Positions 18,660 to 57,964 of a stretch of DNA of 64,000 bases are shown here, in pieces; positions within the stretch are counted from its first letter, which is position 1; each line of letters starts with the position of its first letter. The notes under the pieces were generated by a model. That model worked only from the letters and a program-made list of their open reading frames with translations, did no database searches and had not been told where the DNA came from. Location: the NCBI RefSeq assembly GCF_000004825.1, contig NW_008805071.1:434001-498000 (forward strand). The letters are read 5' to 3'. The translations under genes were made by a program, and so were the position numbers. Origin of the DNA: Heterostelium album PN500. Its lineage: Eukaryota; Evosea; Eumycetozoa; Acytosteliales; Acytosteliaceae.

Positions 18660-20360
18660 TTAATCAATGTCGGTTATGGTTGTGTCGAGATCAATATTAT
18701 TAAACTTTCTAATGATATGTTGATAGAAGCTGACTGCTTTCACCAGGTCAGTGATTGCCAACTTCTCGTTGTAGCCATGTAGCATTGCAAGTCCTTGACT
18801 GTTGACAACACATGGCATTATACGATAGATGTTGGGTGACACCGGCCAGTAGTATCGGGTGTCGGTATTTGCAAACATGAGTCCGGACTTGACGTTCACG
18901 TCTTGTCCAAAGATTTTCTTGATGCACTGCTTGACCGCTTTGAATGGCTTGGCGGCGGGACTCGAGTATGGCGATGGTGGAAGTTTGGCGTCGATGATAA
19001 CTTTGATTCTGGTGTCGTTGATCAAGCGGTTGTTTCTCTCGATGATGGCATCGACGTCATCGCCTGGAACCACACGATGACTAATCCAAGCGGTGGCGGT
19101 GGTCGGCAACACATTTGGCTTGATCCCAGAGCGGAACATTGTCACGGTGGTGGTAGTTCTTCTCATGTAGTCGAGGAATGGAATCGTTTCGATTTGTTGC
19201 TGTGTAAATTGATCGAGGAATTGATTCGGGTAGAGTGTGCTGTTCGGTGGTGGAAGCGGGTTCGATTCAAAGGCGGTGACGGCTTTCGCGAGAATACCGA
19301 TTGGCGATTGCTGTGAGGGTGGCATCGAGGAGTGACCGCCTGGCGCAGTGGCGGTGATGTTGAAGTAGACGTAGCCTTTCTCGTTGACACCGAGCAACGC
19401 GGTAGTGGTGTTAAGTCCCGGGAGGAATCCGGCTTGTAGCAGCGGGATGCCCTCGTCGAGAATCATCTCGGCGGTGATTCCGAGGCTTTGGACGTGTGCC
19501 GATATCATCTTGTGGCCGTTGTATCCACCGATTTCCTCGTCATGTCCGATGGCAAGATAGAGTGTTCTCTCGGGGACGTACGATCGATTCAGCAGAGTTT
19601 CGATTGCCTCCATCGCACTGATTACGATCAGTTTGTTATCGATGGAACCACGACCCCAAACATAGCCATCTTTGATGACACCACCGAACGGATCGACCGA
19701 CCAGCCCGACATATCAACAGGCACAACATCGTAGTGACAATTGATAAAGAATGGCTTCAGCGCAGGATTGCTACCATCCCATCGATACAACATCGAATAG
19801 TTATTTATAATCTCTCGATTCAAGTGGCTATGTAAAACTGGGAATGCTTGTTGTAAATATTGAATGAAATCGGTGAATGGTTGATAATCAGTTTTAATAT
19901 CTGGATCATCTTGTGAAATTGTTTTAAACTTTATAGCCTAATTGAATTGAATTGTTAATATAGTAAAAATAATTGTGTATAGATAATAATATTTACATTT
20001 GCTAATTTTAATGCAACTTTATTGGCATTCGATTGTGGATATGCATTTACATTTGAAGATGGTGCAAATGACACCGCTACTAAAAAAATAAATAAAGTAA
20101 AAACTAAAAACTAAATAAGAATAAAAGAATTAATAATTAAGTCTTTATTGGATATATGAATAAAGAAAGTTTATATTTATACTTACTACAGGATTTAATA
20201 AAGTTATCCTTCTTTTAGGATCAGTGAATTGTTGGTAACACAGTGGCAGCATGGTTTGAAACTTTTTAGATATTATCTGTTTTGTATGACTAAACCAATT
20301 CCTTAGCAATGTTGGAATAATAAATGAAACAATGGAGGTGAATGAACCCTTTAAATGCAT
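18660..20360 (-). CDS. M20 peptidase, PM20D1/carboxypeptidase S-like
   Basis: Zinc metallopeptidase of the type that hydrolyses or forms N-acyl amino acids. Exons 20187-20360, 19997-20110 and 18660-19937 give up to 521 residues. The two-zinc site is complete: His of INCHYDVVPVD, bridging Asp of GRGSIDNK, the Glu pair of HDEEIGG, Asp of ILDEG and the late His of AMLHGYNEK. The second exon encodes a hydrophobic run (FLVFTLFIFLVAVSFA) after the basic DPKRR of exon 1. This makes a signal anchor as in yeast Cps1, so the catalytic part should be lumenal or secreted. The start is uncertain: the ATG at 20360 or an in-frame ATG at 20252. Asn-X-Ser/Thr sites fit a secretory route. Confidence 0.87.
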
Positions 20361-23815: not shown

Positions 23816-23886
23816 GGCTCCATAGTTGAATGGTACAATACTACCTTTGGGTGGTAGTGGTCTGGGTTCGATTCCCGGTGGAGCCC
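23816..23886 (+). tRNA. tRNA-Pro (anticodon UGG)
   Basis: A full cloverleaf can be drawn. The acceptor GGCTCCA pairs with TGGAGCC at 23879-23885. The D stem is GTTG/CAAT. The anticodon stem CTACC/GGTAG has loop TTTGGGT, which puts TGG at 34-36. The T arm is CTGGG/CCCGG with loop TTCGATT. The discriminator is C73, usual for eukaryotic tRNA-Pro. The B box reads GGTTCGATTCC and a T5 terminator follows at 23891-23895. No intron is present. Confidence 0.95.
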
Positions 23887-23969
23887 CAAATTTTTAATCA
23901 TCATTATAACGCATGCGGTAAGTATTGTATCCTATGAAAAAAAAAATGATCTGCTCCACAAGCATCACA

Positions 23970-25372: not shown

Positions 25373-28300
25373 ATGATTAAATCCTATTTTTTATTAATCA
25401 TTTTAATATTTTTAAATTTAAAAAATATAAAAGTAGTAAAATCAAATGAACTGAGTCAAAATGAACGTATGTAAAGAATATTAGTTATTTTTTTGATCTT
25501 TTAAAGTTAACTTTTTTTAATTATTTTTTTAATAGTGGAATCAATCATATTTGTGATTACTCAAGTAAATATATTGATATTTAATATTTTAAAAAGGAAT
25601 TTTATTTTTTCTAAATTTTGTTAAATTTTAGTATCAAACAGGTTGGAATGTAAATGGAAAGAGTTGTAGTGAAATTACAACTTCTGGATTACAATGTAAT
25701 ATAGTTGATGGAGCAGAAACTATTCAAACTATGTAAATATTTATATAAAATTTTAATTAAATTCAATAGACACTAATACATACCTATTGAAATATTAATC
25801 CATTAGAACAATTTCATCAACATCTTCAATAGACATTGGGGAGCCAGTGTACAGAGATAGTTTAATTTTTCCAAATTTAATTAGTTTCGAATTATTAGTT
25901 GGACCTAAAAAGAATACATCTTACAATATACTTTCTTTACTTGACAATCAATATAATGTAAACTTAAAAACCTTAAATTTCTATGATCAAACTTTTATAT
26001 TTTCAAATAGTTTTCCTACATATATTAATTTAGTCTCCTTGTAAGTATAAATAACTTATTATCATATTATTTGTCCTAACCATTTATTTAATTCTTCAAA
26101 AACAGGTTTATTCAAAAAGCTATTGTCCAGAGTAACTTTAGTTTAACAAAATCGTTGTCAACATTAACAGAATTAAGATTATATGATATTAAATACACTC
26201 CAACATATGGAATGATAGTGGATTTTACCAATCCTATTAATTCACCACTTCAATATTGGTAAGTAAACTAATAATAGTTTACAGTTACATATTAATAGGG
26301 AATCTTCTTATAGTGATTTGCAGTCTATAGATGAGTTTACCATTGTAGGAGGTGTATTCAAAATTTCTGATCAATATTTCCCTTCATTGTTAACTCTTAG
26401 TCTTGATGTACGTTCGAGCATTAATCCAAATTTTATTCTTAATTCAAATTCAATTGAATATATGTAAGAGAAATTAAAAAATTAAAAAATTCTCTTATTT
26501 ATCAATCTCTACATTGAATAGGACTTTAAACAATATAAACTTAGAAGTAACTAATGCTCCCAAATTAAATTATTTGTATGTATTAACAACCGATTATTTT
26601 AATATTTTATATTCTAATAAATATCAATTCAAAGGAGTATAACAAAGTGTGACCTATCAATAACTGATTATTGTATATTTTATTATTTAAAATCATTGTA
26701 AGTTTTATTATAAATATATTCTTTTTTTCTAAAGAGCTAATAATAAATTGAGTATAGATTTGTTTTTGATGGATATTCACCTATTTCTAAAACATGTTAT
26801 CTTGATACATTGAAAGTAGAAAGAACCTCAGTACCTAATGTACCTGATGCATCTTGGTTTACTAATGGACCTTTTACTCTGTAAGTATTTTGATTTATTA
26901 TCTATTCATTTTTATATATTTATTTACATATCTCAAGATCATTGGATAGTACGAATTCATCTGGTAGTATGGATTTTAGTTATATAGAGGGTGTGAAGAC
27001 TTCTATATCTATAACGGGTACCCAAAATGTTACCCTACAATTATTTGATAATTATTGTCAACTTAATGACTTTAATTTATATGATCTAGTTCTTAGTAAC
27101 ACAGGATATGTACCAGATTGTTTTTATTGTTATTGGCCAGATGTATTTCAAAGACTCCCTTCCAATACTCCACCTCCACCATCAAACTATAAATGCAGTA
27201 AGTATCATTTCTTATAACCAACTTTTTAAAGTAATTTATCATAAAAATTAACTTGAATAATCAATTATAGATATTACACTTGATAGGCTTGGATATTTAA
27301 TTTTTCGTTCTAATTGTAAGAAAATCTTTAAATCCCTCATCTAAAAACAAAAACTAAATTAAATTATTCAAATTTTATTTAAAGTAAATATTCAACTCAT
27401 TGGAAAGAGTTTAGGATATGGAGATAATGTAAGCCCCAATACAATGCTGGTAGATACACCCAATTACAGGTTTAAGTAAATATTGATTTATAAAATTATA
27501 TATACAAAGAATTAAGCTAATACTAATGGAATTTTATAGTTACAGAGTATTAACAGAATATGGAAGAGACACAGTTTCTTTCTCAACAAAATATAATTAT
27601 TCTTTCAATATTTTTTGGGGTCTTTCTAGTATGTATTTTCTATCTTTAAAATATTATTTTACTATTTTTATTAATATATTTATCTTTCTAGTTAAAGCAG
27701 ATTATATCTTGATGAATAGGTTAAGTTCAGGTGACTTATTAGTAAAATCATTTGGAATGTTTAATATTTATGCACCTTTAAGTGTTTCAATAGGAAATCG
27801 GAGTTGTGAACTTTTTTTTAACTCCACCAAAGAATTGAATTGTATTATCTCAAATTATTCTACAACCACCCCACAATTGGTAAAAATATCAGACACTCTT
27901 TCTCAAGTCGGTTTATATAGTGTTTTAGGTAAGAAATTTAAAATTTGAAAAAACAAAATATTGTTATTAATGCTCTTTAAAAATATTAGATTTTACAATT
28001 ATTTCTTACACTTACTCCAATGTTTTGATAGTTAATGCAAACTTTGGATTTAATCCTTTCAATGTTTCAGTAACAATATCTGAATTTAAATGCAATATTA
28101 CATCTTTAAATGATACACAACTTATCTGTACTCCAGCTCCAAACATTCCTTTCAGTCAATATATTACAATTATGGTGTATGCCAATAGTTTAAATGGATC
28201 GATAATATACGAGAATCAAGCAGAGTGTAATCCTGTTTCAACTTGTAATGGAAATGGAATTTGTATAAATAGCATATGTGAGTGTAAAAGTGGATATGGT

Positions 28301-29149
28301 GGTTACAATTGTCATAATAAGTTGGATCCAGATATCATTATTTTGCCAAACAACACCAACCCATCACCAATTATCATTGTCAAAGATGGTTTAAATTTTA
28401 CTTTCAATATAATCGCAGTTCAAGAGATAGATGAATTGACATCTGTCATTAGAGAAATTAGAACAGATAAATGGATACATTCAACAATTGGAAATGATAC
28501 TTTGAGTATCTCAACCTACAATTTACAATCATCCACACCAGAAGTAGATCAAATCAAAGCAACTATTGAATATTCAAAGAATAGTAGATTGATTAAATTT
28601 GCTGGACAATCAACATTTTATCCAGAGAATAGTTTGAAATTGATGATCGCAATCAATAATTGGTCATTCAAGAACAGGTTGAATCAAATAAGAGTCTTGA
28701 TGGAAACAAAAGCAGTTGTCAACCGTGATAAATGCTTAGAACCTGGAATTAATGTAAACAATGCATCAGATATTAATTTTCTTTCTATCTCTTATGGAGA
28801 TCAAACACTCTACGGTAGATTCCTTCCATTTGGTTTATCAGATAACCGGCCAATTTTTGTTCAAAATCAGGTTGTCAACAAAACTGAATCATTAATTACT
28901 ATTGGAATGATCTTACCTTATGGAAATAGTATCATCATAGATCCAGATTTCTCAGTTTTAATCAACCCCAATTCGAAATCAAAAGAATGTTCGAAGGGAT
29001 TTGAAACTTGGAAAATTGTTACCATAGTAGTTGTATTGTCAGTGGCTGCTTTTGCTGTTGCTGTGGCTACTGTAGTTTTATTGAAAAAGAAATCGAAAAA
29101 TCGGAAAGAAGCAAAGAGAATTGAAAATAGATTAAAAGAAATGAAATAA
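25373..29149 (+). CDS. ComC-like EGF-domain cell-surface protein
   Basis: A type I membrane protein of the large dictyostelid ComC family. Fifteen exons close in frame to 958 residues: 25373-25466, 25536-25564, 25632-25732, 25807-26040, 26106-26258, 26314-26463, 26522-26575, 26635-26697, 26758-26880, 26938-27197, 27271-27315, 27385-27469, 27540-27628, 27692-27928, 27990-29149. The order is a signal peptide (FLLIILIFLNL) and leucine-rich segments whose exons nearly all break in phase 2, a pattern left by exon duplication. Next come an IPT/TIG-like stretch, an EGF module (CNPVSTCNGNGIC then CECKSGYGGYNC), the ComC C-terminal beta region, one helix (IVTIVVVLSVAAFAVAVATV) and a short basic tail. 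The family is tied to cell-cell communication. The ligand is unknown. Confidence 0.85.
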
Positions 29150-29457
29150 AAATAGATTAGGTCTCACAGTTTTCGAATACCCACTATAATTTTGTCTCTA
29201 AGAAACCATTGTCCAAATTTTTTGTTCACTTTCTTCTTTTATTGTGGTAAATAGATATTAAAAATATGAAGGTGTATGTAAACTTAAATTATTTTTTAAG
29301 AATACTAATTTATTTTGAAATTCTAAAAAAGGAATACAGGTTAATCTAGGCGCTTCACTTGTTTTGTTACACCAATTTTGTAATTTTTTTTTTCTCAATA
29401 CAATTTTGTTTTTGATTGAATAGGGACATAAATAGATATTGATATTATTTCCGTAGT
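29150..29457. other. Short intergenic space between convergent genes
   Basis: 308 bp separate the stops of the ComC-like gene and the HAP2 homologue. The sequence is A/T-rich with a T run at 29382-29393. I found no coding continuation of HAP2 (no membrane helix in any frame on the minus strand). Confidence 0.55.
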
Positions 29458-30984
29458 TTATTCAAAAGTTTTAATAATGACCGTATCGGTAGTATTGAAT
29501 TTAATAAGAATAGAGTCAAACAGTGTTCCCATAGCAAAACCCTTTAAATCGGCATAACAATGTTGAATACCACCTAATTTAGTTACAGTTCTAATTTCGA
29601 ATTTGCTTTCAAATATTTCGTTTGGTTTCATGGTGAACACTTGACTAGGTGTGTTGACTGTGATACCATTTGTACAGTTCAAAACATTGAGATCATATTG
29701 TTCTTTGGTCGCTCCAATATTCTTTGTTTGAATATAAAGAATTCCATCTGTGGACATTGATTCGAAAGTTTCAAGACGATTCGAAACAAATACAGCTGGA
29801 CTCTCTTTGTAGGCATATGCAAAGTTGTCAGCTTTGATCTTATTTGTGAGAACTGATGTTTGTTTGCCACCTAGCTCGACCTGAAGGAACAAATTTTTAT
29901 TTCCTGTATAGCGATAGATGTCAGCACTAGCACCATAGTTGATGATTTGGTATTGACCTTTTTTGCCCTTGGCATACAAAGCCATATCTTGATCCCTGAA
30001 CTTCTTTATTTGGTTATCTAGACATGCGTTCATTGGTGCACTACACTGATTAGGCTGATTCTGAAAAGCCTCATATCCCGTTGCAATCTTACTACATTCC
30101 CCTGAAGAACCAAGGAATGATATAGGAAAAACCAAAGCTTTCAATTCGAAAGGCAATTTGTGTATTGGGTTGTTGGGATCTGTTTTTTCTTTGAGAACGA
30201 AAAACATGCTGCTCTCAAAGGTTCTCAAGGCTTGACGCCATGCAAAATCACCTTCCAATTTGATAACGATTCCATTGGCGTTGATAATCAGGTTATCGTT
30301 TCCCATTCGGTAGGTCTGAGTTTGGGTAGCTCCACTGGTCTCGTTGAACTGGGTAATATTAACAATTATATCGTAGGTGGTCATGGGTGGTTCTATTGAG
30401 TAGGCATCGTAGAGGAGTGGTCTTTCGGCCATATACGATGCAGATGAAGATCTACCTTCAAAGAGAATACAAGAGAGAAGCGCACGGCTGTCGCGATCCA
30501 TTCCAAAATAGCTACCAAGGTCACAACTACAACAGAATCCTTGCCTGCTTACCAGAGGAGTCTCTCACGGTCGGACATATATGATCGGATGGACTATCTT
30601 TACAGCTACTGAAAAGTAAATAGTCGCTGGTGTAAAATACATTCTCATATTTCTCCTCTGAATATGACCCTCTATAGATTAGAGTTGATTTACTGTACTG
30701 CTTAGATTTCGAAATTGTTAGAATCACAGGATATACCAATGAAGTTGTTGTACCATCTTCATTTTTAATATCGTTAAGAGTGAATTCATAAGATTGATCC
30801 TTTTTGATATTTTTTTTTAAAAAAAATAATACAAATTAAAATTTAATTTTTTTAATTGTTAAAAATCTATTCTTATACATACTTGATTAATATCTACATT
30901 TAGTTCAACAACAAACATTTTTTTACTATTTAAATATTTATTAACTTTTTTAGATTCTGGAGTACCATCTTTACATATAACCAT
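29458..30984 (-). CDS. HAP2/GCS1 gamete fusogen homologue, apparently broken or mis-assembled
   Basis: Class II membrane fusogen that merges gametes in many eukaryotes; dictyostelids use homologues in macrocyst formation. Exon 2 is 29458-30799, and exon 1 runs upstream from 30883. Diagnostic segments are the Cys-rich QGFCCSCDLGSYFG, CSAPMNACLDNQIKKF, GQYQIINYGASADIYRY and the domain III run SMSTDGILYIQTKNIGATKE. Three oddities are visible. First, a hydrophobic leader-like run (31012-31059) is in frame but has no ATG before it; the first in-frame ATG is at 30984. Second, the frame changes within a GAGAGA tract near 30561-30566. Third, the protein stops straight after domain III, without stem or membrane helix. 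It could be a decaying gene, a soluble form, or the result of sequence error. Confidence 0.82.
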
Positions 30985-31248
30985 CAGACTCGATGAAGTT
31001 TCACCTCCTCTTATAATATGTAGATTATAAAAAAATAAAATGAATAGAATAAATAAATATTTTTTATATGTAAATTTAAATAAGAAATGATTGTTGAGAT
31101 CAATTTTTTTTTTGCCTTTTTTTTTGAATCAAGAAACAACAGCAACCAGTTGCTAAAAAAACAGTAGTGAGTCAAATTGGGTCCACACAAATCAAATATT
31201 TTTTAATAATGATTTTTTGGTGACATTTTTTTTATTATTATTAAATAA

Positions 31249-36413: not shown

Positions 36414-39400
36414 TTACTTCTTCTTGTATGGAGCATAGGATGGGGATGTTGGTGAATATGATGGAGAGGTAGGACTGTACGATGGAGATGTTGGGGAGTA
36501 TGATGGGGAGGTTGGTGAATAGCTTGGTGATGTTGGTGAATAACTTGGTGAGGTTGGAGAGTATGATGGTGAGGTTGGCGAATAACTTGGCGATGTTGGT
36601 GAGTAACTTGGTGAGGTCGGTGAATAGCTTGGCGAGGTTGGTGAATAGCTTGGTGATGTTGGTGAGTAGCTTGGCGAAGTTGGCGAGTATGACGGTGAGG
36701 TTGGTGAATAACTTGGTGAGGTCGGTGAGTAACTTGGCGAAGTTGGCGAATAATATGGCGAGGTTGGCGAGTAGCTCGGTGAGGTTGGTGAGTATGATGG
36801 GGAAGTCGGTGAATAACTTGGAGATGTTGGCGAGTATGATGGTGAGGTTGGAGAGTATGATGGCGAAGTTGGTGAATAGCTCGGTGATGTTGGTGAATAC
36901 GATGGACTGTTTGCGTTGTAGTTTGGTGAAGCTGGGAAATAAGAGAATCCACCTGAAGATGAACCTCTAGCAGGAGAATAGGAAGGTGAGAAATCTCCAC
37001 GATATTGTTCGTTAAATGGTGAGAATGGTGCATCCAATGGGCTGAATGGATGATGATATGGAGTACTTCCACCATCGTGTGAAGGAGTTTGACTGCCTGG
37101 CTCGTTATAGTGTGACATCATGGTCGATGGCTCTGGCATGGCAATCGAGTGAGCATTCTTGATCATGTCTTGATTCAAATAGACTTCGAAACTACCGGTT
37201 CCAAGTGGTGGAAGCTGACCGAGAATGATGTTTTCAGTGACACCCTTTACGTCGTCAGTCTCTGAGAACATGGCGGCATCCATGAGAATTTCTACGGTCT
37301 CTTCGAAAGAACAACGCATCAATGGTCCAGACTCTACACGATTGATACCGTGTCTGGAGATGGCCATCAAATGACCACGATAGGTCATAACGTCAGCGAG
37401 AATTGCCAAATGACGATAGTTTACGTAGGAACCGTCGAAAGAAATGACTGCTCTCAACTCCTTCAACAATGCATTACGCACCGCCTCAATACCGAGTACC
37501 TGAATGATTTCAATGATATCGTTGGACACGGTTCTGCTGTGATCGACGTCTGGATGACTCATTACCTCGAGGAGATTGACACCGTCGGTATCGAGTACCC
37601 ATTCCTTCTTGCTAAAGTATGCACCGTTCTCGTTGACTCTGACTTGGTCATCGTGACGCATGAATACCTTCTTAATTCCACGAATACCACAGAGCACCAT
37701 CTCACTGAGCATCTTGGCTTCGATACGACGAAGGAAAGTATCGTCATCATCGTTACCGTCGGTCTTGGAGTCATTGTCCTCGATGGTACGAATACGAATG
37801 ATCAGTTTGTCTGCGTTATCATCACTGAAAATACAGTTGAGTCTACCGAAATCACGCTTGATACACTGGGTGATGTCGGACAGCGAGAGTTTCTTGTCAG
37901 TAACCATCTCACGGTCCAACTCGATACGTAACACCCATGGTGACAAGACATCATCGGCTTTGGTATCGTCGTCTGGCAAGAGTAAGTAACGACTGACAAA
38001 CTCCTCGTCCTCTTTGACCAATGTCTGTTGTGGATCTGGGTCATAGTAGATCTCTGTGGCGGCAGTAACCGTTGCCATCGTAGTGTATTCGAGCTGGCAT
38101 TGAACTGACTTGGCCTTTTCAGAGTCTTTGGCGGCATCCGGTTGCAAGTAGATAGTGAGTGATGGAGTTTTTACAGTTTTAGCGATATTGATAATTTCCT
38201 TGAGACGTGGTACACCAAGAGTTACGTTCTTTGAAGACACACCAGCATAATGGAAAGTGTTCAAAGTCATCTGTGTGGCGGGCTCACCAATGGATTGCGC
38301 AGCAAGTGCACCTACCATCTCACCTGGATTTACGATAGAGAGGAGGAACTTGCTCTCGACTTCACCGACCATCCAGTTGAAAGCCTTCTCGTTGAGTCTA
38401 AACTCTTCGAGTACACGCTTCGATGAGAGTGTCGATCTCAACAGGATACTAAAGAGTAGAGTAGCATTCTGATGAGTCTCGCTCCACGCTTGACTGTATA
38501 TGGTATCCTCTTCACTGGCATCAATCTGTGCAATAATCTTTAGACGTGAAATCAAACCTTCGATGCTGTTGACAACGTGTGCCGGATTGAGATCACTTAT
38601 AGTACGATGATCGATACCGAATTGCTTGTGAGCATTGATGATCATACGACGCAAGTTGACCGGGAGTGGCCATGAAGCTTCACCGGTTGGAATAATTTCA
38701 GTACGTAGCAGATTTCTGTCGAATTCGATACGCTTGAACTCACGGTCCAGTGTCTCACGAATGGTAGAATCGTTACGAATCTCCTCGATGATCAGTGGAT
38801 TGATCCAACCGTCACCATAGTCGGAACGGTCGATCTGATGCTTGTAGAGTTTGATGAAATCTTGATTGTCACGCTTGAGTGAATCAAACATTTGATTCTC
38901 AACGAAACAACTGTCAAGACCGTCCTCACCGTAGGCAAATTGGATGACATCACCGAGTGAATTTCTAACGGTGGCATCATACTTGACACTGACGTCCTCC
39001 ATAGCCTTGACGAGACGACGCTGGATATAACCGGTTTCCGAAGTCTTTACGGCAGTATCGATAAGACCTTCACGACCACCCATAGCGTGGAAGAAGAACT
39101 CTTGTGGTGTCAAACCACGAAGATATGAATTCTCTACGAAACCACGACTCTCGGGACCGTAATCGTCTTTGGTGAAATGTGGAAGTGTTCTGTTTTGGAA
39201 ACCGAATGGGACACGTTTACCTTCTACGTTCTGTTGACCTACACAGGCCATCATCTGTGAAATATTAATGAAAGAACCTTTGGAACCTGCGTTTACCATT
39301 GCCTTTACATTGTTGGATTCCTGGAGGGAACGTTGTGCGCTGGTACCGGCATCGTCTCTTGCTGTGTTGAGCACACGATTGACTTCCTTCTCGAAAGACT

Positions 39401-41733
39401 CTAGCATAGAACGACCGGGCTGACATTCAAACTGGTTGCTCTGTGCCTTGATGATGAGCTCCTTTACCTGTGTTTTGGCGTTGGCGATGGCACTTGTTAC
39501 CTTGCTCATGGTAGCAGCATCGGCAATAGTATCACCAATACCTACGGTGAAACCGTGGTTAATCAACCAATGGTTGACCACTGTCTGTGTCTGATCGATG
39601 AAGAGACGACACGAATCGTGACCGTGCTCATTCATAACTACGTGAATAATCGATCCGTTGGCCGCACCAAGAGATCTCTTACAGAGGATACCGGTGAGAA
39701 GTTCTCCCTGGTCAATGATGACGACAGTGTCTGCAGCCATCTCTGATTTCTCCTTTTCTTTGTCGCTGTGAGTCGAACCGAAACGCTGAAGATTGATGTT
39801 TGGAATGATCAACGAGAACAGTTGCTTACCGGTCCAGAGCTTCTTTGGCTTCCAGATGGCGGGTGGTGGGATTTTACCGTCCCACGATGGCAACCACATG
39901 AGAATGTTCATCATTAGATCTCTCTCAACGAAGGTGTCTCTCTTGGTGAACTTCATGCTACCGAGCAATGTGTCCTGTACGATACCCATGACTGGACGAT
40001 TCGATTGTGGTGAAACGATCTGACGTGGTACCATCATAATCTCTATGATTTCAGCTCTTGTCTCAAGCGATTGAGGTACGTGAAGATTCATTTCGTCACC
40101 GTCGAAATCTGCATTGTATGGCGATGTTACAGAGAGATTGAGACGGAAAGTAGAATAAGGCATGACCTTGATTCTGTGACCCATCATAGACATTTTGTGA
40201 AGTGATGGCTGACGATTGAAAATGACGACATCACCGTCTTGAATATGACGCTCTACCTTGTAACCACACTCCAAATGAGTATCGGTAATCTTCTTTACAA
40301 AACGAAGATCGAAACGAGTTCCGTCTTCACGAATAATATATTTGGCACCGGGATGCTCGTTTGGACCGTTACGAATTAACTCTCTCATACGGTCGATATT
40401 GAATGGTGTCACCGTTTCTGGGTAGGTCAAATTGAGTGCGATCGAACGTGGCACACCGACTTGATCAATAGAAAGATTGGGATCGGCAGTAATGACTGTT
40501 CTTGCTGAGAAGTCAACACGCTTACCCATCAGATTTCCTCTGATACGACCTTCCTTTCCCTTTAAACGCTGACGGATCGACTTGAGTGGTCTACCGGAAC
40601 GTTGTTGAGCCTGAGGCAAACCTGGAATCTCATTGTCGACGTAGGTGGCAACGTGGAACTGCAGGAATTGAGTTGCCTCTGTGATGATGTGTGCTGGTGC
40701 ACCGTTCTTCTCTTGCTTTCTGAGCTCACGATTCGCCTTGACAATATCGGCCAACTTGTGAGTCAAATCGTCCTCACCTCTCGAGGCAGTATCCATCATA
40801 ATCGATGGACGCACTGGTGGTGGTGGGACCGGCAACACGGTGATCACCATCCAATCGGGACGTGCCCACTCGGGATTCAAACCCATAGCACGAGCATCGT
40901 CATCACGGATTCTCTTTAATATACTGTGAACTCTTTCTGCTGACAACACCGACTTCTTCTCGACAGTGTCGTCCTGTACATCTTTAAATTCGACTACAAA
41001 CTTTAATTCCTCCTTTGTGATCTTTGGCAGCACATTACCGCAACCATCTGCCTTTGGCTTTCTATCCAACTCTTCGTCTGTCTTTGAGAGATCATCTACC
41101 TGATCCTCCTGGTTGCCCTTGGCAACTGCACATACTTTTTTATTCTTACAAATATCGACAACTGCATTCAATCTTCTTTTTGGGTTTTTAATTTTCAATG
41201 CCTGTCTAAAGTGTATATCATCCTATAAATAATACCATTGTTAGTTATAAAATGAATGAATGAATCGATGATGAACTAGATTTTTGATATTTACAGTATC
41301 TACTAATAGTTTGGAACAATGGTAACAAACGCATTTTAGGATCTTTAGTACTGTATTGATAAATCCAATGTGAAATACTGGTTTGGCAAGCTCGATATGA
41401 CCGAAATGTCCGGGACATTCAGCCATCGTTCCAGAGCAGGTTGCACACTTTTGTGTTTTATCGATGGTACCCATGTGTGGATCAACTAAACCTCCAATTT
41501 TTGGTTTTCCATTTTCATAGGTTTCTGGGTGTTCAACCAATGCCACAGACATATCTCTCTATATAATGATAAGATCATCATCAACAACATCAATAACAAT
41601 GAACTTCAAATTGCTAATCATTGTGTCAATCTCTCTATTTTTAAATACTTACAATATCTTCAGGACTCAGAATACCGAATTGTACTCTCTTTACCTTTCT
41701 CACTTCAGCAGTAGAATGTTGTACCGAAGCCAT
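36414..41733 (-). CDS. rpb1: RNA polymerase II largest subunit (RPB1)
   Basis: Catalytic subunit of nuclear mRNA polymerase. Exons 41653-41733, 41295-41558 and 36414-41222 give 1717 residues. The N-terminus [16 protein letters not shown] is followed by the zinc-binding clamp [17 protein letters not shown]. The metal-A loop is [15 protein letters not shown]. The bridge-helix and trigger-loop region includes GAGTSAQRS-like sequence ([12 protein letters not shown]) and [15 protein letters not shown]. The end is the heptad tail at 36436-36900, followed by YAPYKKK. Both introns fall in the first 120 residues. The transcript has an unusually long A/T-rich upstream space. Identity is certain. Confidence 0.98.
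36436..36900 (-). repeat. RPB1 C-terminal heptad array
   Basis: About 22 tandem copies of YSPTSPS encoded by 21-bp units with varied codons. Nearly all heptads are canonical; one reads YSPTSPY. The array is followed by SYAPYKKK. Degenerate heptad-like sequence ([20 protein letters not shown]) precedes it. Confidence 0.95.
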
Positions 41734-51020: not shown

Positions 51021-51174
51021 AGACCACCTAGGATCAACTTTACATACTGTTTTTTCTCAACTCGATAACATTAAATAACTCAGCAAAAAATAAAAAAAAA
51101 ATAATATCAAATATTTAAATTTTATTAAATTATGTCTTTAGCTTTGATTATTATTAGTTGTTGTATACACAAAA

Positions 51175-51284
51175 GGCAACCAGCATAACGACGAGAGGAA
51201 ACCGGCATAGCAACGAGAAGCAACCGGCATAGTAACGAGAAGCAACTGGCATTGCAACGAGAGGAAACCGGCATAGTAAAGAGA
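51175..51284. repeat. Five 22-bp tandem repeats
   Basis: Units start at 51175, 51197, 51219, 51241 and 51263. The consensus is close to AGCAACCGGCATAGCAACGA followed by GA. Copies differ at two to four positions. The block is much richer in G+C than its surroundings. Because 22 is not a multiple of three, it is unlikely to be coding. Confidence 0.9.
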
Positions 51285-51919
51285 AACTAATAATTCATCA
51301 ACACCTCCAAACCCACTCATTTTCCCGAATGTTTCATAAAGTTGAGGTTGATGATGATGTTGTTGGATTAGTGGTAGTGGAATGACATTTGCTTTTCTTC
51401 AAAGAATTTATATAAAAAATATTAATATCCATGTTACAACGCATCTATATTTGCTTTGGTACAGGTGCATTGAGTCATTGCTTTCGTGGACTGTTTACCA
51501 ATCATCAGCCTCTACATTGCAACAATTTTTAAATCAAACTATATAATTTCATATGATACGATTCAACATCAACAATCACACAATATTAAGATCTATATCG
51601 GGATCCACTCCAACAACAATTCACCACCAACTTTGTCCAAAGTACCGATAACTACAATCATCTGCACCAAGTCAATCATACAATTAATAATCATTCCTAT
51701 CCTCGAGCAACTCTTTTGCAAATTAGATACTTCATTAATCACCATTGATCGAAAAAAAAAAATCTATTTTTTTTTTAAATTTAAAAAAAATAAAAATAAT
51801 TCAATTTTCAAAAAAAAACGAGTCGATTGATTAATCAATATTACATTATTATTTGTTTGGAGTTGAGCACAACACTTATATTGTTTGATCAATAATAATT
51901 AATAATATATTAAATTAAA
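51285..51919. other. Intergenic upstream of RPA12
   Basis: Mixed A/T-rich DNA. A 114-codon plus frame at 51486-51830 is Ile/Ser/Thr-rich and ends in Lys/Phe homopolymers. It matches nothing I know and could be untranslated leader. I do not call it. Confidence 0.45.
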
Positions 51920-56038: not shown

Positions 56039-57964
56039 TTAACTTAATCCAATTACTTTTCCAGTTTTTACGTCGATATCGATTTCATAGAAACATGGAC
56101 GTGTTGGTAAACCTGGAATGGTTGCCATCGTTCCGACCAGCGGGTAGATGAATCCGGCACCGATACTGGCACGAACATCTCTGATCGGGAGGATGAAACC
56201 TTTGGGTACTCCTTTGCGCTCGGCGTCGTGACTGAGCGAAAGATGTGTCTTGGCCATGCAGATGGGCAGCTTGTCGAATCCCTGACGAGTGTAGAGCTCG
56301 ATCTTACGCTCTGCCTCTGGGAGATACTCTACACCGTCGGCACCGTAGATTTGCTTGGCGATGGTTTCGATCTTCTCTTTGATCGACAAATCCAATGGGT
56401 AGAGGTAACGGAAGTCGGCTGGCTGCTCATTGCACGCCTGGATGACCGCTTGACCGAGAGCGACGGCACCTTCACCTCCTTGTGCCCAGTGGTTACACAT
56501 GACCGCTGCGAATGCACCGGCTGCCTTGGCACGTTGTTCGACAAGCTCCACCTCGGCGTTGGTGTCCGAGGTGAAACGATTGACGGCAACCACAACGGGG
56601 ATACCGAACTTTGCGAGATTCTGAATGTGTAGTTCGAGATTGGCCAAACCGTTGCCGAGCAGCTCGAGATTCTCGTCGGTGTAGGCAGAGGCAAGTGGTG
56701 TTCCGGCAACTACTTTTGGACCACCACCGTGCATCTTTAGCGCACGGATAGTGGCAACGATAACTGCGCAGTCTGGCTTCAATCCAGAGGTTCTGCACTT
56801 GATGTCAAAGAACTTCTCGGCACCAATGTCAGCACCGAATCCAGCCTCGGTGACAACGAAACCTTCGGAACCGGCGAGCTTCAAGGCGATACGATCGGCA
56901 ATGATCGACGAGTTACCGTGAGCGATGTTGGCGAATGGACCGGCGTGAACAAGAACCGGTGTTCCCTCGAGTGTTTGCATGAGAGTTGGCATGATGGCAT
57001 CTTTCATCAAGACGGTGAGCGCTCCACCGACACCGAGGTCGTCGGCGGTAATTGGCATACCAGCCTTGCTGGCACCGACCACCATGCGACCAAGACGCTC
57101 TCTCATATCGGCCAAATCCGTGGCCAGCGCTAGGACAGCCATAATCTCAGAGGCAACACTAATATCAAAGTTTGTCTTTCTCTGGAAACGCTCTTCCTCT
57201 TTGCCCTGGCCAATGGTGATGCCACGCAGGAAACGGTCGTTGGTGTCGAGAACACGATTCCAAGTGATAGTGGAGAGATCGAAATCGAGACGAACAAACT
57301 TGGAGATCTCCTCAGCGGTCATGTCGGCCGGTGTGTTGGCGGTGATGCCCAGCTTGCTGAGACGACGGAGCATTACTGGTGCGAAACGAGTCGAGCCGTC
57401 TTTGGCGACCGGACACAAACGCTTGAAGAGCTGCTCGTCGGTCTGAGTGTTCTCGTGGAGAATACGCGCGTCTATAGCGGCGGCGAGCAAGTTGTTGGCG
57501 GCGGTGATGGCGTGGATGTCACCGGTCAAGTGCAGGTTGAACTCCTCCATGGGGATGACCTGGCTGTAGCCACCGCCGGCAGCGCCACCCTTGATGCCAA
57601 AGGTTGGTCCCTGCGAAGGCTGACGCACACACGAGAACACCGGACGCTTCAAGTGCGCTCCCAACGCCTGACACAGACCGATGGTAGTGGTCGACTTGCC
57701 CTCACCGAGCGGGGTCGGTGTGATACCTGTGACAACAACATACTTGCCGTTTGGTGAGCTGGCCAGACGCTCCAACACACTGAGATGTACCTTCGCTTTA
57801 TAACGACCGTAATAGTCGATTTCATCTTCTCTGATACCAATGTGACTGGCTATCTCTGAGATTGGCATTGGTATGGCTGCCGATGCAACATCGATATCTG
57901 ATGGTACTGGTACCTTTAAATCTAATTTTGGATAAACAAATGATGATGTTGTTGTTGTCGACAT
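56039..57964 (-). CDS. Formate-tetrahydrofolate ligase (10-formyl-THF synthetase)
   Basis: ATP-dependent joining of formate to tetrahydrofolate for one-carbon metabolism. A single exon of 641 residues covers the whole monofunctional enzyme, about the length of the C-terminal domain of eukaryotic C1-THF synthase. It shows the P-loop [14 protein letters not shown], the folate-binding [20 protein letters not shown], the [12 protein letters not shown] motif and a C-terminus matching the MTHFD1 end ([16 protein letters not shown]). The dehydrogenase/cyclohydrolase part is absent, so that function must be encoded elsewhere. No targeting leader is obvious, so it is probably cytosolic. The coding G+C is high for the window, as expected for a strongly expressed gene. 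Confidence 0.95.

What the first reader, a model, noticed from the sequence alone, without database searches (positions are those of the whole stretch)
29458..31128. HAP2/GCS1 fusogen homologue with no ATG before its leader, a frame break and no membrane anchor
Seen: diagnostic HAP2 segments (QGFCCSCDLG, CSAPMNACLDNQI, domain III). The hydrophobic leader-like run at 31012-31059 is in frame but no ATG precedes it before a stop at 31129. The frame changes in a GAGAGA tract at 30561-30566. The stop comes right after domain III with no helix in the 308 bp downstream. Known: HAP2 needs a signal peptide and a membrane anchor to fuse gametes. Inference: either sexual fusion genes are decaying in this lineage, or a soluble ectodomain is made, or the locus is mis-sequenced. 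Three independent defects make chance sequence error less likely, though the tract is error-prone.
Basis: partly seen in the sequence, partly recalled or inferred. Interest (0 to 1): 0.75.

Follow-up and report, generated by a model that had tools for sequence, protein, structure and literature searches.

The report
Freshly dead second gamete-fusion gene copy
A social amoeba carries a second, broken copy of its gamete-fusion gene, while an apparently intact copy elsewhere in its genome still encodes the leader and membrane anchor, so what we see is one spare copy that died recently rather than the loss of the fusion gene.

Summary
The window is Heterostelium album (Polysphondylium pallidum) PN500. 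The locus is a real HAP2/GCS1 copy (Pfam E 2.7e-94), annotated as PPL_08729. The missing start codon, frame break and missing anchor are all there, but the frame break is not in the GA tract: it is an 11-base deletion, relative to a paralogue, between 30544 and 30543, and a normal intron (30882-30800) was overlooked. The same genome holds an intact paralogue on contig C9 (PPL_07716) with leader, all 14 ectodomain cysteines, membrane helix and basic tail. The copies share upstream sequence, one intron position and 80% of their DNA. In the window copy homology stops after domain III, where the DNA becomes a fragment of a dispersed repeat that includes the stop codon. Pairwise dN/dS is 0.20 and 0 of 505 codons compared is a stop: the copy was constrained for most of its life and died recently. 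Best reading: a recently pseudogenised hgrA-type duplicate. An earlier soluble-ectodomain phase is not excluded but not needed. No reads, RNA or sister strains were available.

The parts
31077..31242 (-). Upstream flank related to the upstream flank of the intact C9 paralogue (approximate limits)
   Evidence: Local alignment score 89.1; 1000 dinucleotide shuffles gave mean 49.7, maximum 82.3, 0 of 1000 reached it
31168..31180 (-). 13 bases (CCAATTTGACTCA) identical upstream of both HAP2 copies
   Evidence: 4 exact places in the whole genome, 2 of them the HAP2 pair; the reversed control pattern has 1
30883..31064 (-). Remnant of the first exon, with hydrophobic leader-like run (31059-31012) but no start codon
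   Evidence: the start codon's place reads ACA in one alignment and falls in a 9-base gap in another
30800..30882 (-). Intron 1, GT-AG, 83 nt, 10% GC, same position as in the paralogue
30544..30799 (-). Second exon up to the frame break
   Evidence: PF10699 match E 4.2e-9 for the open frame that contains it
30543..30544 (-). Junction of the 11-base deletion relative to the C9 paralogue
   Evidence: DNA alignment
29458..30543 (-). Open frame after the break: rest of the HAP2 ectodomain to the end of domain III, stop codon 29460-29458
   Evidence: PF10699 E 2.7e-94; dN/dS against C9 0.14, 95% 0.09-0.20
29375..29481 (-). Fragment of a dispersed repeat at the 3' end of the HAP2 homology; includes the stop codon and an AATAAA
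   Evidence: At least 10 other places, 83-91% identity; aligned
29295..29322 (-). Second, 28-base piece of the same repeat
   Evidence: Matches 9 of 10 copies at 92.9-100% identity
29323..29374 (-). About 50 bases between the two repeat pieces, mostly without counterpart in the ten copies aligned

Best explanation
A recently dead duplicate of the H. album hgrA-type HAP2/GCS1 gene. An ancestral gene was duplicated with its upstream flank; both copies diverged for a long time under purifying selection. In the window copy the 3' part (stem, second intron, membrane helix, basic tail) is missing where the gene joins a fragment of a dispersed repeat, and the start codon, 11 bases and two invariant cysteines have gone as well. 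Shown: homology, lesions, repeat junction, long constraint, a paralogue that reads as intact. Inferred: the order and cause of the lesions, and that no functional protein is made today. That the C9 copy alone now serves gamete fusion is inferred from what HAP2/HgrA does in other species, not tested.
For: Intact paralogue in the same genome; DNA identity 80% over 1620 columns; shared intron position and upstream flank. Lesions: no start codon, 11-base deletion, no anchor, repeat fragment at the junction, 12 of 14 conserved cysteines left. Recent death: dN/dS 0.202 (95% 0.15-0.28) over 505 of 511 codons; 0 stops in 505 codons, where a neutral branch of 0.32 substitutions per site would give 15-22 and the 95% bound on neutral time is 0.030-0.047 over 6 settings. 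Decay at conserved sites: of 88 sites where P0003, P0004 and P0005 agree, 9 changed in the window copy only, 0 in C9 only, 18 in both. Window protein branch 0.20, C9 0.07.
Against: After the deletion the polarised changes are 13 in the window copy and 17 in C9, and with P0004 (Acytostelium) alone as outgroup 21 against 24: no excess. dN/dS after the deletion is as low as 0.14, so the reading frame itself shows no decay. The repeat fragment looks older than the loss of constraint if taken at face value. No transcript or read data. M1 in the count of 9 rests on the gap-free alignment; without it the count is 8 against 0.
Confidence: 0.8

Rival explanations
1. After losing its 3' end to the repeat the copy lived on as a secreted, anchorless HAP2 ectodomain under selection, for instance as a decoy or regulator of the anchored paralogue, and died only later.
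For: The open frame ends just after domain III and the repeat supplies the stop. The repeat fragment differs from the element consensus at 8 of 74 columns (5 of 64 columns invariant among the ten); if it was young when joined, 0 stops since then has a posterior-mean probability of 0.0008-0.017 over four ways of counting. Laboratory ectodomains cut after domain III are soluble, and the A. thaliana one binds liposomes (PMC6089408, passages).
Against: One common time (0.032-0.044) fits about as well as two times: 2dL 0.00-1.15 in 6 of 6 settings. The fragment may have been old, or of another subfamily, when joined. Today no start codon and no unbroken frame.
Confidence: 0.12
2. The lesions are errors of sequencing or assembly and the gene is intact in the living strain.
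For: The assembly mixes dideoxy and 454 reads (PMC5282741, passages), and another PN500 gene in GenBank is called of poor quality (PMC7614253, passages).
Against: The break is an 11-base deletion outside the GA tract. The 3' end runs into a repeat fragment that is not identical to any of the ten copies aligned. The loss of the start codon and of two cysteines is a separate change each. There is no N in the window.
Confidence: 0.06
3. The public model PPL_08729 is right: the gene is expressed with extra introns that step round the frame break.
For: A 371-residue gene model exists and maps to four exons of the window.
Against: Its two extra introns (about 30550-30454 and 30207-30040) are 46% and 38% GC, against 10% in the shared intron; they cut out blocks that align as coding in the paralogue, among them the QGFCCSC cysteines. 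The model starts at 30918, after the leader. Models of this genome were predicted by Augustus (PMC5282741, passages).
Confidence: 0.02

Closest known systems
H. album PPL_07716 (contig C9), hgrA-type HAP2/GCS1
   Same: 80% DNA identity from leader to the end of domain III, same first intron position, related upstream flank
   Different: Has start codon, unbroken frame, all 14 ectodomain cysteines, second intron, membrane helix and basic tail
Dictyostelium discoideum HgrA (DDB0308506 in PMC4910948; P0003 here is taken to be it, by inference)
   Same: HAP2-GCS1 domain; P0003 is 35% identical to the C9 protein
Dictyostelium discoideum HgrB
   Same: A second HAP2-related gene in one dictyostelid genome
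   Different: HgrB resembles HAP2 only in the motif region and split off before the dictyostelids radiated (PMC4910948); the window copy is a young duplicate of the hgrA type
Soluble HAP2 ectodomain constructs of A. thaliana and T. cruzi
   Same: End after domain III, without stem and anchor
   Different: Engineered and expressed (PMC6089408, passages); the window copy cannot be translated as such

Membership tests
Functional HAP2/GCS1 fusogen | HAP2-GCS1 domain | tested here: met
   PF10699 E 2.7e-94 for 30543-29458 and E 4.2e-9 for the part before the break
Functional HAP2/GCS1 fusogen | Signal peptide with start codon | tested here: not met
   Hydrophobic run present (best mean 1.57) but no ATG in its frame before it
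Functional HAP2/GCS1 fusogen | Unbroken ectodomain frame | tested here: not met
   11-base deletion between 30544 and 30543
Functional HAP2/GCS1 fusogen | Conserved cysteines | tested here: not met
   12 of 14 kept; two that are cysteine in C9 and all 5 relatives are not
Functional HAP2/GCS1 fusogen | Membrane anchor after domain III | tested here: not met
   None in 3 minus-strand frames of 29457-29150; the paralogue's tail is found on C9 only, apart from one weak match on C5, E 0.05
Functional HAP2/GCS1 fusogen | Expression in gametes and need for fusion | not testable with these tools
   No RNA or phenotype data
Pseudogene (dead duplicate) | Close intact relative in the same genome | tested here: met
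   C9 paralogue
Pseudogene (dead duplicate) | Disabling lesions | tested here: met
   Start codon, frame and anchor lost
Pseudogene (dead duplicate) | Loss of constraint | tested here: inconclusive
   9 against 0 changes at 88 conserved sites, but dN/dS 0.20, 0 stops in 505 codons, and 13 against 17 polarised changes after the deletion: recent loss at most
Pseudogene (dead duplicate) | No functional product | not testable with these tools
   No RNA or protein data

The most novel reading that the evidence does not exclude
For part of its history the second copy was a selected, secreted HAP2 ectodomain: a natural soluble class II fusogen that modulated the anchored paralogue. It may still exist, intact or in this soluble form, in other strains or in the opposite mating type.
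Probability: 0.12. Interest if true: 0.75.

Novelty: new member of a known kind. Interest (0 to 1): 0.32.

Why it matters
It removes a false alarm: the locus does not show that this amoeba is losing its gamete fusogen. It shows a dictyostelid with two hgrA-type genes that both stayed constrained over a long divergence (dS about 0.65) before one died, a death that sister strains could date. It points to two public gene models to correct: PPL_08729 steps round a broken frame, and PPL_07716 leaves out the leader and anchor that the DNA encodes. If other strains keep the second copy, perhaps by mating type, the question why some mating types need HAP2 and others do not could be asked in a second species.

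Tried and rejected
Upstream exon supplying an ATG: the only ATG between the upstream gene's stop codon (31251-31249) and the leader is at 31226-31224 and meets a stop after 7 codons; no GT lies between it and that stop except inside the ATG itself (read by eye). Rejected as a start.

A tiny intron restoring the frame: a 13-base GT-AG stretch at the deletion would fit arithmetically (by eye), but is far shorter than spliceosomal introns known to me in this group, and the paralogue has coding DNA there.

A lost 3' exon elsewhere: the paralogue's last 138 residues match C9 (two pieces) and, weakly, C5:277520-277624 (E 0.05), which was not followed.

A third HAP2 copy or HgrB: the family search at E up to 10 gave the same three matches, at two loci. 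A weak relative such as HgrB could be missed, so its absence is not shown.

The shared 13-mer as a promoter element: of the two other sites one lies inside a long open frame and one between two open frames of unidentified genes. No support beyond the HAP2 pair.

The soluble phase from the age of the repeat: suggestive, but one common time does about as well. One search used a wrong number of unchanged sites (70 instead of 61); one search repeats the fit with 61. The 8 of 102 and 5 of 92 used there count the 28-base piece as 0 differences, which is true against 3 of the 10 copies only, and allow 0.02 for divergence within the element.

Regional dN/dS: the high value in exon 1 (0.71) comes from one estimator; two others give 0.21 and 0.33, so I draw nothing from it.

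Which cysteines pair with the two lost ones: looked for in PMC6089408 and PMC6327110 (passages), not answered. No structure was predicted.

Papers: PMC4910948 was read in all four parts of the held text, without supplements. Passages only: PMC6089408, PMC6327110, PMC6369745, PMC8784728, PMC7614253, PMC5282741. Other papers were seen as search listings. The tags PPL_08729 and PPL_07716 are in 0 papers of the held library.

Full report
What the locus is. The window lies at C10:434001-498000 of a genome of 32.9 Mb in 39 contigs. The protein search names the organism as Heterostelium album PN500 and the locus as PPL_08729 (contig lengths agree). The minus-strand frame 30543-29458 matches the HAP2-GCS1 family with E 2.7e-94 and six distinct PDB sequences, HAP2 proteins among them.

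What needed correcting. Compared with the paralogue, the frame break is an 11-base deletion between 30544 and 30543, 17 bases downstream of the GA tract that was blamed. A normal intron, 30882-30800, separates the leader exon from the next. The start codon is indeed missing: its place reads ACA in one alignment and falls in a 9-base gap in another.

The intact paralogue. A family search of the same genome found a second locus, C9:148552-149988, E 7.2e-146, profile 17-495 of 515. The two stops reported inside that match lie at its two ends, in the flanking introns (by eye). The DNA reads as a leader with ATG, a 91-nt intron, the full ectodomain, a 63-nt intron, a membrane helix and a basic tail. 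The introns were placed by eye and by open frame, not by transcripts. Best 19-residue hydropathy is 2.12 in its leader and 2.92 in its anchor; the window leader has 1.57. The public models miss this: PPL_07716 starts elsewhere and skips the helix, and PPL_08729 steps round the frame break with two introns of 46% and 38% GC, against 10% in the shared intron.

Relation of the two copies. DNA identity is 80% over 1620 columns, 31064 to 29475. The upstream flanks are related too: score 89.1, reached by 0 of 1000 shuffles. In a tree of seven proteins the two pair with support 1.000, with branches of 0.20 (window) and 0.07 (C9). This is a duplicate within the lineage, of the hgrA type, and not the old HgrB branch of D. 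discoideum (PMC4910948).

The 3' end. Where the homology stops, the window turns into a piece of a dispersed repeat found at 10 or more other places at 83-91% identity (such counts are lower bounds). An alignment with ten copies shows the shared block starting around the end of the HAP2 homology; it includes the stop codon and an AATAAA. The elements are large: most pairs share nearly all of the 1.1 kb fetched, and three fetched at 9.9 kb share blocks of up to 4 kb. They carry a glutamine-rich open frame without a Pfam match. Stem, helix and tail are absent from the window, and the paralogue's tail is found on C9 only, apart from one weak match. Deletion or recombination at the repeat is the likely cause; this is inference.

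How long it was alive. Over 505 of 511 codons (6 with gaps dropped) dN/dS is 0.202 (95% 0.15-0.28). By part it is 0.71 (0.37-1.84) in exon 1, 0.31 (0.16-0.61) before the deletion and 0.14 (0.09-0.20) after it. Two other estimators give 0.18 and 0.20 overall, and 0.21 and 0.33 for exon 1. No codon compared is a stop. A neutral branch of 0.32 would give 15-22 stops over six settings, and zero stops bounds the neutral time at 0.030-0.047, that is 9-15% of the branch. So the copy was constrained for most of its life.

Signs of recent decay. At 88 sites where P0003 (D. discoideum), P0004 (Acytostelium) and P0005 agree, 9 changed in the window copy only, 0 in C9 only and 18 in both. At 46 sites shared by all five relatives the counts are 4, 0 and 3. 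Two of these are cysteines: 12 of 14 remain. With D. discoideum alone the counts are 31 against 13. Against this, with Acytostelium alone they are 21 against 24, and after the deletion the polarised changes are 13 against 17 (all).

Could it have been a soluble protein under selection? The repeat fragment differs from the element consensus at 8 of 74 columns, which looks older than zero stops allows if death and truncation coincided. But one common time (0.032-0.044) fits about as well as two, 2dL 0.00-1.15 in 6 of 6 settings. Ectodomains cut after domain III are soluble in the laboratory and the A. thaliana one binds liposomes (PMC6089408, passages), so the idea is physically sound but not needed. 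Today, with no start and a broken frame, ordinary translation cannot make it.

Limits. No reads, RNA or sister strains were available. The assembly mixes dideoxy and 454 data (PMC5282741, passages), and another PN500 gene in GenBank is called of poor quality (PMC7614253, passages). The kind of lesions makes error unlikely but does not exclude it. That PN500 mates, and that PPL_07716 does the fusing, were not tested here.

Verdict. A recently pseudogenised second HAP2 gene beside one that reads as intact. Ordinary in kind, useful for correcting gene models, and a good target for comparing strains.

Noticed in passing
28025-29149 (+), with a frame at 27526-27948: Gene convergent with the HAP2 remnant: ComC supersandwich domain (E 2.2e-17), EGF- and IPT-like pieces and a C-terminal membrane helix; related DNA at 11 or so other places on C27 (clustered), C7 and C38.
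   Followed up: no
L012-L024 (contigs C17, C7, C25, C11, C28, C3, C9, C10): A large dispersed element in at least 10 copies; in the one examined (L022) 528-column inverted repeats at 94.9% identity flank about 8 kb, with a glutamine-rich open frame without Pfam match.
   Followed up: partly
51174-51398: Matches a short-period array inside the same large element (L022 8213-9132), so a second trace of it lies in the window.
   Followed up: no
31168-31180: A 13-base sequence identical upstream of both HAP2 copies and at only two other places in the genome.
   Followed up: partly
L001 (C9:147052-151488): The public model of the intact paralogue, PPL_07716, lacks the leader and membrane helix that the DNA encodes.
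   Followed up: yes
36414-41198 (-); 56039-57964 (-); 18660-19823 (-); 23816-23887 (+): Ordinary neighbours: RNA polymerase II large subunit with heptad repeats, formate-tetrahydrofolate ligase, M20 peptidase, tRNA-Pro.
   Followed up: no
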